In this document: positions 1,395 to 5,195 of the stretch, piece after piece
Layout of the letters: each line of letters starts with the position of its first letter
Position numbering within the stretch: position 1 is the first letter of the stretch
Assembly (NCBI GenBank): GCA_946543095.1
Contig: CAMNLO010000044.1
Location: 1 to 9,602, forward strand
DNA length: 9,602 nt
Origin: an uncultured bacterium
GTDB lineage: Bacteria; Bacillota; Clostridia; Lachnospirales; Lachnospiraceae
Direction: 5' to 3'
Notes under the pieces: model-generated
The model's database searches: none
Told to the model about the DNA's origin: nothing
What the model saw: the letters and a program-made list of their open reading frames with translations, nothing else
Made by a program: the position numbers and the translations under genes

Positions 1395-4300
1395 ATGAGA
1401 AACGGCTTCACGACCGGAAGCTGCGCGGCGGCGGCCTCCAAGGCGGCGGCCTGGATGCTGTTTTCCGGGCAGGAAAAAAAGGAGATCACCATCATGACCC
1501 CCAAGGGGATCCCCTACACCGCGGCCATCGAAGAGATCCGCAGGGAGAAAGGGATGGTTTCCTGTGCCGTCAGAAAGGACGGGGGAGACGATCCCGATAT
1601 TACCACCGGGAGCCTGGTGTTTTCCGAGGTGCGGATCTGGGAGGAAACGGCCGGTGAAGTGCCAAATGGCAGGATCGGAGCGGGTGGTCCGGAAAGTCAA
1701 TTAGTTAACATAACTCAGTACGAAAGAAGAGGGAAGACTGATTCAGAAGATGAATTAGTTGACATAATTTATACTGATAAGAACGCAGAATGTGATTTGA
1801 ATTGCAGCGTAGTTAACATAACTCAAAACGAAGGAAGAGGGAAGACTGATTCAGAAGATGGATTGGCATCATCAGAGGCTTATTCAGGAGAGAACAGGCT
1901 GACGGGGAATGCAAATAGAGCAGCAAGAATCGTAATCGACGGGGGAACGGGAGTAGGCCGGGTCACCCGCCCGGGTCTGGATCAGCCCATAGGCAGTGCC
2001 GCCATCAATCATGTGCCTCGGGAGATGATCGAGAAAGAGGTGCGGGAGGTCTGTGAGCTCTTTGATTTTACAGGGACTCTGAAGATCACCATTTCTGTCC
2101 CCGATGGCATAAAGCTGGCGAAGCGCACCTTTAATCCCCGCCTTGGCATCGAAGGCGGCATCTCCATTCTGGGCACCAGCGGCGTGGTGGAGCCCATGAG
2201 CGCCCAGGCCCTTCTGGACACCATTAAGGCAGAGCTTTCCGTGCTCTCCTCGGAGGGCAGGAGGATCTGCGCCATTTCCCCCGGAAACTACGGGCAGGAC
2301 TATATGAAGGAGGCCTACGGCTTCGACCTGGATGCGGCGGTGAAATGCTCCAATTTTATTGGGGACACCTGTGAGTTCGTGGCGGAATACGGCTTTACCC
2401 ATATCCTGATGTGCGGCCATATCGGCAAGTTTATCAAGCTTTACGGCGGCGTTTTCAACACCCATTCCCATGAAGGAGACTGCAGGATGGAGCTTCTTAC
2501 CTCCGCGGCCTTACGAGGCGGGGCGGATGGGGACTGCGCAAGACGGATCCTTTCCCAGATCAGCACCAGCGCCGGGCTTACGATCCTGAAGGAAGCGGGA
2601 CTTCTTGAGAAAACCATGGAGGAGGTCCTGCGGGGAGTCATGGACACCTTAAACCGCTGGGCTCTGGAGCGGTATCAGGTGGACTGCATCATCTACGAGA
2701 ATGATTTCGGCGAGTTGGCCAGAAGCCGTGGCGCGAAAGAGCTGGTGGAGAAGCTGGTGCGGGGGGATAAGACAGAGGAGGATCCCGAGGGTAACCCGGA
2801 GCATCATCAGGACGCTTATTCCCAAAGGCAGGCAGATCCGGAGAAATTAGTTAACATAACATCAAACAGCCCGCATGATAATTCCGCAAAAACTTGTGGC
2901 GATTCTGAGGATGTAGTTAACATAACACTAGGACAACAGCCGGATCACACATTATCTGAAGGAGACAGAACCGAAAGTATAGTTAACATAACATCAAACA
3001 GCCCGCATGATAATTCCACAAAAACTTGTGGCGATTCTGAGGATGTAGTTAACATAACACTAGGACAACAGCCGGATCACACATTATCTGAAGGAGACAG
3101 AACCGAAAGTATAGTTAACATAACATCATCCCCCAGTATCATCTGCTTCACAAAAGAGGGCCTGATCATGGCAGACCGGATCGCCGGGATACTTGGGAAT
3201 GCGAAGGTTTACATCAAATCAAAAGCCTTCATACCTGAAACAGGCATCCTTGTGCAGAAACCCCTTACGGCCTGGGTCGCGGAGCGCTTTGCCACCCATT
3301 CCCCTATTGTCTTCATCGGCGCCATCGGTATCGCAGTCCGGGGCATTGCGCCCTCTGTGGAAAACAAGCTGACAGATTCCACCGTGATCGTGGCAGATGA
3401 GAAGGGGCACTTTGTGATCCCCCTGCTTTCCGGCCACTACGGCGGAGGCATCGAGCTTTCCCAAAAGATCGCGGAAGGTCTTGGAGGCGAAGCTGTCGTC
3501 ACCACCGCCACAGATACAAGAGGCCTCTTTGCCGTGGATGTCTTTGCAAGGAAAAATGATCTTGTGATCAGTAAAAAGGACGGCATCAAGCTGGTCTCCT
3601 CAAAGCTTCTGGAGCAGGGCAGCATCACGATGCAGATCGACGGCGGAAAGATCCTTGGTAATGTGCCGGAAGAGGTGCATCTGAAAGGAGCAGACACGAT
3701 CCTGAGCCCTGCTTTTGCCGAGAGATCTCCTTCCGCGTCTTCAGATGATCGATCAGGCGATACTTCGCAGGATTATGAGCATGGACAGCCGGAGGTGTTC
3801 AGGCCGCCCTATAGCTATGGCGCTGATTTTTCCGAGGGGGCAGGAGAAGCAGGAACTGCAGATACCTGCTGTACTATTGGCGCGGGCAGTTTCTCAGCCG
3901 ACGTTCTGGTAAGTGTCAGGGCTGCAGCACCCCCTACCGTCTCAGGATCCAACGCATCGGCGGCCGGCACTACATCCGGCGTCCATACCGGCGAAACTGC
4001 TGACAGCGCCGACACCGCAGTGCCCCTCCTCACCCTCCACCCCAAAGCCCTCCACTTGGGCATCGGCTGCAGGAAGGGGGTGCCCGCAGACCGGATCCGG
4101 AAAGCGGTGGAGGAGGTTCTTTCGGAATACGGCTATGCAAAAGCCTCCGTTGCCGCTGTGGCCTCAGCGGACTTAAAGGCTGAGGAGACGGGTCTGATCG
4201 AATTCGCAAAGGAACTGGGAGTCCCCTTTACTACCTATTCCGCGGAGGAACTGGAAGCAGTCCCCGGAGAGTTCACAAAATCGGATTTTGTGCGAACAAA

Positions 4301-4436
4301 GGCCGGAGTGGACAATGTGTGCGAAAGATCTGCAGTACGCTCCTCCGGAAACGGGAAGCTTCTGGTCCGCAAGCAGGCGAAGGAGGGTATTACCGTGGCC
4401 CTTGCGGAGGCGGACTGGGCAGTTAAGTTTACATAA
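1395..4436 (+). CDS. cbiD-cbiG: CbiD-CbiG fusion: cobalt-precorrin-5B C1-methyltransferase / cobalt-precorrin-5A hydrolase
   Basis: One uninterrupted 1013-codon frame carries two enzymes of anaerobic corrin synthesis. CbiD covers about residues 1-455: GFTTGSCAAAASKAA at 4-18, KDGGDDPDITTG at 61-72, then VIDGGTGVGRVTRPGL after residue 180. CbiG covers about 579-1013: IICFTKEGL at its start, the FIGAIGIAVRGIAP block, LSGH at 678-681, an ATDTRG motif, and the C-terminal domain opening with LGIGCRKG at 888-895. CbiG opens the lactone of cobalt-precorrin-5A and CbiD methylates the product at C1, so the fusion joins consecutive steps. CbiG has no start codon of its own at the expected place; the Met at 592 would remove its first strand. 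Three insertions make the protein about 300 residues longer than two standard enzymes: residues about 84-176 inside CbiD, about 456-578 between the enzymes, and about 774-877 inside CbiG. The ATG at 1395 is the only plausible start because TGA at 1389-1391 closes the frame upstream. The ribosome binding site is modest (AGGA, 1382-1385). Confidence 0.93.
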   Translation: MRNGFTTGSCAAAASKAAAWMLFSGQEKKEITIMTPKGIPYTAAIEEIRREKGMVSCAVRKDGGDDPDITTGSLVFSEVRIWEETAGEVPNGRIGAGGPESQLVNITQYERRGKTDSEDELVDIIYTDKNAECDLNCSVVNITQNEGRGKTDSEDGLASSEAYSGENRLTGNANRAARIVIDGGTGVGRVTRPGLDQPIGSAAINHVPREMIEKEVREVCELFDFTGTLKITISVPDGIKLAKRTFNPRLGIEGGISILGTSGVVEPMSAQALLDTIKAELSVLSSEGRRICAISPGNYGQDYMKEAYGFDLDAAVKCSNFIGDTCEFVAEYGFTHILMCGHIGKFIKLYGGVFNTHSHEGDCRMELLTSAALRGGADGDCARRILSQISTSAGLTILKEAGLLEKTMEEVLRGVMDTLNRWALERYQVDCIIYENDFGELARSRGAKELVEKLVRGDKTEEDPEGNPEHHQDAYSQRQADPEKLVNITSNSPHDNSAKTCGDSEDVVNITLGQQPDHTLSEGDRTESIVNITSNSPHDNSTKTCGDSEDVVNITLGQQPDHTLSEGDRTESIVNITSSPSIICFTKEGLIMADRIAGILGNAKVYIKSKAFIPETGILVQKPLTAWVAERFATHSPIVFIGAIGIAVRGIAPSVENKLTDSTVIVADEKGHFVIPLLSGHYGGGIELSQKIAEGLGGEAVVTTATDTRGLFAVDVFARKNDLVISKKDGIKLVSSKLLEQGSITMQIDGGKILGNVPEEVHLKGADTILSPAFAERSPSASSDDRSGDTSQDYEHGQPEVFRPPYSYGADFSEGAGEAGTADTCCTIGAGSFSADVLVSVRAAAPPTVSGSNASAAGTTSGVHTGETADSADTAVPLLTLHPKALHLGIGCRKGVPADRIRKAVEEVLSEYGYAKASVAAVASADLKAEETGLIEFAKELGVPFTTYSAEELEAVPGEFTKSDFVRTKAGVDNVCERSAVRSSGNGKLLVRKQAKEGITVALAEADWAVKFT
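1701..1862 (+). repeat. Array 1 of VNIT boxes inserted in the CbiD fold, 54-base period
   Basis: Three 54-base (18-codon) units begin at 1701, 1755 and 1809. Units 1 and 3 open with TAGTTAACATAAC (1702-1714 and 1810-1822) and are nearly the same over their whole length. Unit 2 opens with a degenerate box, TTAGTTGACATAAT, and has an unrelated spacer. Encoded units start LVNIT, LVDII and VVNIT; units 1 and 3 end in GKTDSED plus one residue. The array sits where normal CbiD proteins have only a short link between the DDPDITTG region and the GVGRVTRPGL region, so it is probably an exposed loop. Local sequence is AT-richer than the flanking CbiD code. A decayed fourth unit may follow (1863 onwards), but this is not convincing. 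Confidence 0.85.
2847..3128 (+). repeat. Array 2 of VNIT boxes bridging CbiD and CbiG, 66-base period
   Basis: Five exact copies of TAGTTAACATAAC begin at 2848, 2914, 2980, 3046 and 3112, each exactly 66 bases (22 codons) from the next. The base before each copy varies (T, G, A, G, A), giving L, V, I, V, I before VNIT. Spacers alternate between a KTCGDSED-containing type and a second type containing LGQQPDHT. A hand count of the unit 2849-2980 gives about 41% G+C, clearly below the surrounding cbi code. The array fills the region where cbiD should end and cbiG should begin. Confidence 0.9.
2849..3112 (+). repeat. Near-perfect 132-base tandem duplication within array 2
   Basis: Bases 2849-2980 are repeated as 2981-3112. 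By direct reading the only difference is G at 2886 against A at 3018, which changes Ala to Thr. A further 16 bases (3113-3128) begin a third copy. Each 132-base unit contains two boxes and one of each spacer type. The near identity indicates recent duplication or continuing homogenisation by slippage or recombination. Confidence 0.92.
3715..4016 (+). other. Low-complexity insert inside the CbiG half
   Basis: About 100 residues (774-874 of the fusion) rich in Ser, Ala, Gly, Thr and Asp separate the CbiG N-terminal/middle part, ending near GADTILSP, from the C-terminal domain beginning at LLTLHPKALHLGIGC. Ordinary CbiG proteins have a much shorter connection here. Unlike the two VNIT arrays, this insert is GC-rich and contains no VNIT box, so it is a different kind of expansion. 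It is probably a flexible, disordered linker. Confidence 0.6.
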
Positions 4437-4682
4437 TTCATCCACACTTCTGCCCTCCATCTTTGCTGTGATCCAGATGATCGTGGGAGACATATTGCTG
4501 GTGGCCTTCGGCGAAGCCTTCTCCATCTTTGTGGTCCTGTTTGCCCTGGAAACCCCCGACTACAGAAAGCTCATGAAGACCATGAAGGAGCTGGAGATCG
4601 CAAGGGAAGAGGCAAATGTGGCCAACCGGTTCAAAAGCGATTTCCTGGCTCCAGTGAATACGGCAGCGGTTCCGTCTTTACG

Positions 4683-5195
4683 GTGAAGATCCCCCAGAAG
4701 GTCATCGGTGAGCATACCCTGGGCGACTTTTCCGCAAAGCTGAAGGAACACGCGAATGTGGTCAAAACCGTGGAACGCGGTTTCAGGGCTCCCGGAAAGC
4801 TGGCTTTGGTGGTGGACGATACGAAGATCAATATCATGGTGTTAAAGGGGCTCCTTCGCAGCACGGAGATGACGGTGGACAGCGCCATGTCCGGCCCTGA
4901 AGGCATTGAGATGACTAAACTTAAGAAATACGATATCATATACATGGATCACAGAATGCCCGGGATGGACGGGATCGAGGCCTTCCACAGGATCCGTGAA
5001 GATGCGAATAATATAAACCGCGATACCCCTGTCATCGTGCTGACGGCCAACGCCATCGTGGGAGCCAGGGAATCCTATTTGGAGGAAGGCTTTGCGGAAT
5101 ACCTGACGAAGCCCGTGGAGCATAAGAAACTGTTTGCCGTGACGGAAAAACTGTTGGGAATACATGAAAAGAATCCGGAGATTGATTGGAGGTAG
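4683..5195 (+). CDS. Receiver-domain open frame within the kinase remnant, doubtful as a gene
   Basis: The only long frame left in the remnant could give up to 170 residues from a GTG at 4683. It contains a complete receiver domain: the acidic pair in VVDDTKIN (Asp codons 4815-4820), the phosphoacceptor Asp in YMDHRMPGMDG (4947-4949), Thr in VLTANA (5043-5045) and Lys in YLTKPVE (5109-5111). All five key residues are present, so the fold could still work as a stand-alone phosphoacceptor if translated. Against this, no ribosome binding site precedes the GTG and no output domain follows. The frame begins with leftover kinase C-terminus (KIPQKVIG). It is most simply read as the undamaged tail of the pseudogene. 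Its last codons contain the GGAGG that serves cobT. Confidence 0.4.
   Translation: MKIPQKVIGEHTLGDFSAKLKEHANVVKTVERGFRAPGKLALVVDDTKINIMVLKGLLRSTEMTVDSAMSGPEGIEMTKLKKYDIIYMDHRMPGMDGIEAFHRIREDANNINRDTPVIVLTANAIVGARESYLEEGFAEYLTKPVEHKKLFAVTEKLLGIHEKNPEIDWR
5188..5192 (+). promoter_or_regulatory. Ribosome binding site for cobT, inside the end of the kinase remnant
   Basis: GGAGG is 14 bases before the cobT ATG at 5207, a long spacing. No closer ATG in the cobT frame exists. The site overlaps the last sense codons of the receiver frame, so cobT may once have been coupled to translation of the kinase gene. Confidence 0.5.

What the first reader, a model, noticed from the sequence alone, without database searches (positions are those of the whole stretch)
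1701..3128. Seven exact copies of a 13-base, phase-locked 'VNIT box' inside one B12 gene
TAGTTAACATAAC occurs at 1702, 1810, 2848, 2914, 2980, 3046 and 3112, with a degenerate copy at 1756. Every copy is in the same codon phase, giving [L/V/I]VNIT. I saw no copy elsewhere in the window on either strand. The word contains stop codons in both other forward frames (TAG and TAA; TAA) and in two reverse frames, so inside a gene it is tolerated forward essentially only in this phase. It is also an imperfect palindrome (GTTA-ACA-TAAC). Invariant DNA words separated by variable spacers suggest a mobile or recombinogenic coding-region element, comparable in concept to the Rickettsia palindromic elements that insert in frame in genes. 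It could instead be a protein- or nucleic-acid-level binding repeat. I know of no named family that matches.
Basis: partly seen in the sequence, partly recalled or inferred. Interest (0 to 1): 0.82.

Follow-up and report, generated by a model that had tools for sequence, protein, structure and literature searches.

The report
XerD docking sites woven into genes
A short DNA word repeated inside a vitamin B12 gene is one of 165 copies of the same motif in this bacterium's draft genome and has the sequence of the arm of the dif site that binds the chromosome-handling protein XerD; it is likely a XerD landing pad, and in the same bacterial family it is enriched almost only in genomes that carry the xerD gene.

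Summary
The repeat is real and not private to the B12 gene. GTTDACATAAY has 165 copies in the 2.04-Mb draft genome (reversed control 3), and its exact form is the most over-represented 11-mer in the 943 kb read. The conserved part, RGTTDACATAA then YWY, is the reverse complement of TTATGTHAACY, the XerD arm of dif (B. subtilis TTATGTAAACT). No XerC arm follows, so these are half-sites.

Copies lie between and inside genes, in same-strand arrays with a 31-36-bp spacing peak. Inside genes all 19 spacings are multiples of three. RecJ and CbiD carry them in in-frame inserts that most relatives lack. The DNA word is what is held: 25 of 36 V[NDY]I[TI] peptides use the rare codons GTT and ATA (0.09 expected).

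In 214 genomes of the family, those with XerD hold 1050 copies (control 222) and those without hold 128 (control 235), p=2.5e-19; three genomes are exceptions and relatedness was not corrected for.

Best reading: dispersed XerD landing sites that also multiply in permissive protein loops, probably for chromosome organisation such as SMC unloading. XerD binding and function are inferred; terminus placement is undecided. Full dif, pdif-module and RPE-like readings fit less well.

The parts
1395..4436 (+). Host gene: CbiD-CbiG fusion, 1013 aa
1650..1925 (+). In-frame insert in CbiD that carries three boxes (borders approximate)
   Evidence: alignment with P0002-P0006
1703..1713 (+). XerD-arm half-site AGTTAACATAA, read VNIT
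1757..1767 (+). XerD-arm half-site AGTTGACATAA, read VDII
1811..1821 (+). XerD-arm half-site AGTTAACATAA, read VNIT
2772..3137 (+). CbiD-CbiG linker with five boxes at 66-nt spacing (borders approximate)
2849..2859 (+). XerD-arm half-site AGTTAACATAA, read VNIT
2915..2925 (+). XerD-arm half-site AGTTAACATAA, read VNIT
2981..2991 (+). XerD-arm half-site AGTTAACATAA, read VNIT
3047..3057 (+). XerD-arm half-site AGTTAACATAA, read VNIT
3113..3123 (+). XerD-arm half-site AGTTAACATAA, read VNIT
4426..4436 (+). Ninth half-site AGTTTACATAA in another phase; its TAA is the stop codon of the gene

Best explanation
The box has the sequence of the 11-bp XerD arm of the dif site, occurs 165 times in this draft genome in its GTTDACATAAY form, and is likely a landing site for the tyrosine recombinase XerD rather than a protein motif or a transposon. 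Shown here: the sequence identity, the genome-wide copies, the lack of a second arm, the same-strand arrays with a 31-36-bp spacing peak, the codon constraint, the in-frame inserts in RecJ and CbiD, and the co-occurrence with xerD across the family. Inferred: that XerD binds each half-site, that the spacing lets neighbouring sites be filled side by side, and that selection keeps the sites while spacers drift. Inside genes such arrays would persist only in permissive loops, in the phase without stops and at spacings divisible by three, and would grow by tandem duplication. The most likely job is chromosome organisation: XerD docked without XerC would unload or stall SMC complexes, as XerD does near the terminus of B. 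subtilis.
For: Most over-represented 11-mer, 47 against 0.08 expected in 943 kb; 165 copies of GTTDACATAAY, control 3. Equal to the XerD arm of dif printed in PMC3025954 (passages). Array pattern in 12 of 299 family genomes, no control match. XerD against motif: 106 genomes with XerD 1050 copies (control 222), 108 without 128 (control 235), p=2.5e-19, control p=0.69; p=2e-11 without the 33 rich genomes. This genome has XerD over the family cut-off (351 bits, cut-off 329.6), best solved match E. coli XerD 1a0p. Neighbours within 150 bp: 55 same strand, 4 opposite; 22 of 55 spacings are 31-36 bp, 19 of 19 inside one gene divisible by three. 25 of 36 peptides box-coded, 0.09 expected. RecJ insert. 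XerD as SMC unloader: passages of PMC12322038, PMC8357415, PMC9733580, PMC13342612.
Against: No binding data. 25 of 106 XerD genomes have 0-1 copies, and G181, G332 and G279 have 20, 10 and 16 copies without a clear XerD hit. Relatedness of genomes was not corrected for. No terminus clustering over C1-C80 of this genome (44 loci, p=0.12); clustering by contig in G214 is not tied to the terminus. Orientation to replication is inconsistent: 18 of 21 on the leading strand in G230, 41 against 30 here, mixed in G214. No canonical dif stood out from control in 15 genomes, so the arm could not be matched to a dif of this lineage. In G214 and G230 most copies are in predicted genes (20 of 30, 17 of 21), so intergenic preference is weaker there.
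Confidence: 0.62

Rival explanations
1. A coding-region insertion element of the Rickettsia palindromic element kind: a selfish short element that inserts in frame in genes, the box being its conserved part.
For: In-frame inserts in conserved enzymes; the word is an imperfect palindrome.
Against: Only 11-14 bp are shared; spacers are mostly unrelated; 70 of 125 copies are intergenic; copy number follows xerD.
Confidence: 0.12
2. Sites of a different DNA-binding protein (another tyrosine recombinase, a nucleoid or uptake factor) whose presence follows xerD by shared ancestry.
For: Three motif-rich genomes lack a clear XerD; Xer-like recombinases with 230-250 bits are common in the family.
Against: The full 11-bp identity with the XerD arm, and the motif is near or below control in genomes that have the other Xer-like proteins but no XerD (128 against 235).
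Confidence: 0.17
3. Recombining dif or pdif sites of Xer-dependent mobile modules or IMEX-type elements.
For: XerD arm identity; direct repeats at boxes in the window.
Against: No XerC-like or inverted second arm at the dif distance in 142, 95 and 451 sites (with four non-family loci left out); spacers of 20-60 bp hold no gene.
Confidence: 0.05
4. A local microsatellite-like expansion of a VNIT linker with no wider meaning.
For: The window linker is a 132-bp tandem duplication.
Against: Copies in many unrelated genes, between genes and in other genera; codon constraint.
Confidence: 0.02

Closest known systems
dif, the XerCD chromosome dimer resolution site
   Same: The box equals its 11-bp XerD arm (PMC3025954, passages).
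   Different: dif is one 28-bp site with XerC arm, centre and XerD arm per chromosome; here there are half-sites in high copy with no second arm.
XerD-mediated SMC unloading near the terminus of B. subtilis
   Same: XerD is a sequence-specific SMC unloader there (passages); half-sites would hold XerD without XerC.
   Different: The primary paper is not held, so its site list was not compared. Here copies are many, arrayed and inside genes, and terminus placement is not shown.
pdif (Xer-dif) modules of Acinetobacter plasmids
   Same: Multiple Xer-site-like sequences (abstracts in a search listing).
   Different: Modules carry genes between full sites; here short spacers between half-sites.
Rickettsia palindromic elements (recalled; one listing seen)
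   Same: In-frame insertion of repeated DNA in conserved genes.
   Different: As recalled, RPEs are longer hairpin units; here only 11-14 bp recur and over half of the copies are outside genes.
DNA uptake sequences of Neisseria and Haemophilus (recalled)
   Same: Short word dispersed in coding and intergenic DNA.
   Different: Directly repeated arrays at 31-36 bp and dependence on xerD are not features I recall for them.

Membership tests
dif site | 11-bp XerD arm | tested here: met
   RGTTDACATAA = reverse complement of TTATGTHAACY
dif site | XerC arm after a 6-bp centre | tested here: not met
   No excess at offset 17 in three sets
dif site | Single copy at the terminus | tested here: not met
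   165 copies
XerD-only binding site (SMC unloading type) | XerD arm sequence with xerD present in the genome | tested here: met
XerD-only binding site (SMC unloading type) | XerD occupancy and SMC loss at the site | not testable with these tools
   needs ChIP-seq
XerD-only binding site (SMC unloading type) | Concentrated near the terminus | tested here: inconclusive
   uniform in C1-C80 here; 16 of 41 on one 245-kb contig and 9 of 41 on a 50-kb contig of G214, none on its dnaA contig C89; a closed relative could not be read
pdif module / IMEX | Full Xer sites flanking a gene-bearing module | tested here: not met
   half-sites, short spacers
Rickettsia palindromic element-like element | In-frame insert absent from orthologues | tested here: met
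   RecJ, CbiD; others not aligned
Rickettsia palindromic element-like element | Common unit longer than the box shared between loci | tested here: not met
   blastn of 23 arrays against 943 kb

The most novel reading that the evidence does not exclude
In XerD-bearing Lachnospiraceae, chromosomes carry a family-wide code of tandem XerD half-sites (31-36-bp spacing, one orientation per array) that steers condensin traffic without recombination, and selection for it is strong enough to push in-frame site arrays into the loops of core enzymes such as RecJ and CbiD: chromosome architecture rewriting protein sequence.
Probability: 0.38. Interest if true: 0.88.

Novelty: new variant of a known kind. 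Interest (0 to 1): 0.76.

Why it matters
If XerD binds these arrays, a protein known for resolving chromosome dimers and unloading SMC has a large set of landing sites in a major gut family, and those sites reshape proteins. Genera with and without xerD give a natural experiment on how condensin traffic is controlled away from dif. It would also explain odd VNIT-rich inserts in annotated enzymes.

Tried and rejected
Protein-motif reading: 70 of 125 copies intergenic and codon constraint. RNA-strand reading: intergenic copies run with both neighbouring genes 33 times and against both 25 times. Promoter reading (TTGACA-like): no -10-like columns downstream, judged by eye. Full dif, pdif: no second arm. 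A dif candidate at G000:C38:56-82 (1 mismatch) lies among other copies in a repetitive stretch and is not claimed. Replication polarity: inconsistent. Terminus clustering: not seen here; in G214 contig clustering only. One search took 19 copies for G214:C12; the listing gives 16, and recomputes (p=2e-8, expected 3.1). Viral contigs: one stretch (no R-preceded core on rescan) and two; not pursued. A relative of P0002 was sought in viral contigs only, none found.

Limits: the gene caller is my own hexamer model. Groups use best E-value, not the curated cut-off (84 of 219 pass it); 4 genomes between the groups and G000 itself were left out. The table was typed by hand. The named loci were selected for holding a pair, and several come from one genome. 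In one search four non-family loci (L260, L319, L325, L328) were left out. In one search the caller's starts cut off some boxes of L037 and L048.

Full report
Observation. Shuffles give 0.03 matches on average. The 66-nt array is a 132-bp unit repeated 2.1 times. A ninth, looser copy at 4426-4436 supplies the stop codon.

Genome. The window is contig C44 of a 2.04-Mb, 370-contig, 68% complete draft. GTTAACATAAC has 47 copies there, reversed control 0. In the 943 kb read (101 of 370 contigs) it is the most over-represented 11-mer, 47 against 0.08 expected. Of 71 one-mismatch forms, 45 differ at position 4 and 21 at position 11. GTTDACATAAY has 165 copies, reversed pattern 3. Column counts extend it to RGTTDACATAA-YWY with weak A after it (similar in 112 outside loci, 479 copies against 2 control, at least two per locus forced by selection in 110 of them).

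Family. No other genome of the genus is held. Relatives are unnamed, but contigs of G065 and G214 equal in length records titled Lachnospiraceae, so I call the family Lachnospiraceae.

Identity. RGTTDACATAA is the reverse complement of TTATGTHAACY. Kono et al. 2011 (PMC3025954, passages) print dif as ACTTCCTAGAATATATATTATGTAAACT (B. subtilis), GGTGCGCATAATGTATATTATGTTAAAT (E. coli) and a F. alni form ending TTATGTCAAGT. Two 11-bp half-sites around a 6-bp centre make up dif (PMC5357621, passages); the last 11 bases are the XerD arm. The three H variants here are those of the three species. No second arm, XerC-like or inverted, follows at the dif distance in 142 sites of G000, 95 of G214 and G230, and 451 of named loci (four non-family loci left out, one of which, Paenibacillus L260, does show inverted pairs).

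Spread. The array pattern is in 12 of 299 family genomes, control none, and in 12 of 297 in a second draw that overlaps the first. By title four are outside the group (Paenibacillus, Cyanothece, two Bacteroidota); the other 106 are labelled Lachnospiraceae, Oscillospiraceae, Ruminococcaceae, Eubacterium, Clostridia, Candidatus Equihabitans or only 'bacterium', several from one genome.

Dependence on xerD. TIGR02225 and RGTTDACATAAYWY were searched in the same 219 genomes. Without G000, 106 genomes with best E<=1e-90 hold 1050 copies (control 222); 108 with E>1e-80 hold 128 (control 235); 4 lie between. Mann-Whitney p=2.5e-19; the control pattern does not differ, p=0.69. 33 of 106 against 3 of 108 have 10 or more copies. 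Without the 33, p=2e-11. Against: 25 of 106 XerD genomes have 0-1 copies; G181, G332 and G279 lack a clear XerD yet have 20, 10 and 16 copies; relatedness was not corrected for. This genome's XerD (C190:715-1575) scores 351 bits, cut-off 329.6, and matches E. coli XerD 1a0p best among solved structures.

Arrangement. By a simple gene caller (92% coding), 125 RGTTDACATAAY copies are 70 intergenic, 15 at gene ends, 25 sense in the GTT phase and 15 otherwise coding. In G214 and G230 most are in predicted genes. Neighbours within 150 bp share a strand 55 times and oppose 4 times here; in G214 and G230 20 and 2. Of 55 same-strand spacings up to 120 bp, 22 are 31-36 bp (17 of 36 outside genes). Inside one gene 19 of 19 are multiples of three; outside, 13 of 36.

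Genes. In-frame boxes lie in 10 predicted genes: CbiD-CbiG, RecJ, BirA, MurB, an ABC exporter, an HtrA-type protease, an NFACT protein, two without a Pfam match and one (L035) not scanned. In RecJ the loop has 80 residues here, 29 in 118 of 120 relatives, 37 and 38 in two. In CbiD, P0003-P0006 lack the insert; the close relative P0002 has one VNIT in the insert and one in the linker, with other spacers. BirA, MurB, the exporter and the protease were not aligned to relatives. Of 36 V[NDY]I[TI] peptides 25 use GTT-NAC-ATA, 0.09 expected (GTT 9%, ATA 5% of their codons).

Mechanism. XerD unloads SMC near the terminus in B. subtilis (passages; the primary paper is not held). A half-site array would hold XerD without making a recombination site, and 31-36 bp would leave room for one 28-bp dif-sized footprint per unit; both are inferences. 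Terminus placement is undecided: uniform over C1-C80, clustered by contig in G214 (16 of 41 on C12, 9 on C13, none on C1 or on dnaA contig C89).

In print. Searches for the words, Lachnospiraceae with XerD and dif and XerD-binding with SMC and ChIP-seq (no paper) showed no report of such arrays among the listed titles and abstracts of the held library; the dif papers PMC2731167 and PMC3025954 were the relevant holders of the words.

Noticed in passing
window 3706-4020 (approximate): A low-complexity in-frame insert in the CbiG part without boxes; absent from the close relative P0002.
   Followed up: no
window 4441-5195: Remnants that look like a decayed hybrid sensor: a short ORF tail, then a response-regulator receiver domain (PF00072) without its kinase.
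   Followed up: no
L035, L040, L042, L044 and others (G000): A longer, clearly palindromic dispersed repeat, ending in AAACGCTGATTAAAGCGTTTCC...ATTCGGGTCGCGAAGC and CTAAGGAAATGCTGAATTATTCAGCATTTCCTTAG, sometimes beside the boxes.
   Followed up: partly
L260 4181-4287 (Paenibacillus radicis): Three 28-bp dif-like inverted pairs (arm, 6 bp, inverted arm, some imperfect) spaced 39 bp.
   Followed up: no
L081 1745-1783 (G000:C219): An inverted pair of boxes that could form a hairpin, rare against same-strand arrays.
   Followed up: no
L336 992-1040 (IMG/VR contig 3300028591_000118): A cluster of boxes on a viral-collection contig, one pair inverted; could be a phage or host DNA.
   Followed up: no
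L328 1611-1702 (Bacteroidetes MAG): A 16-bp tandem repeat that contains GGTTTACATAA; probably a chance match.
   Followed up: no
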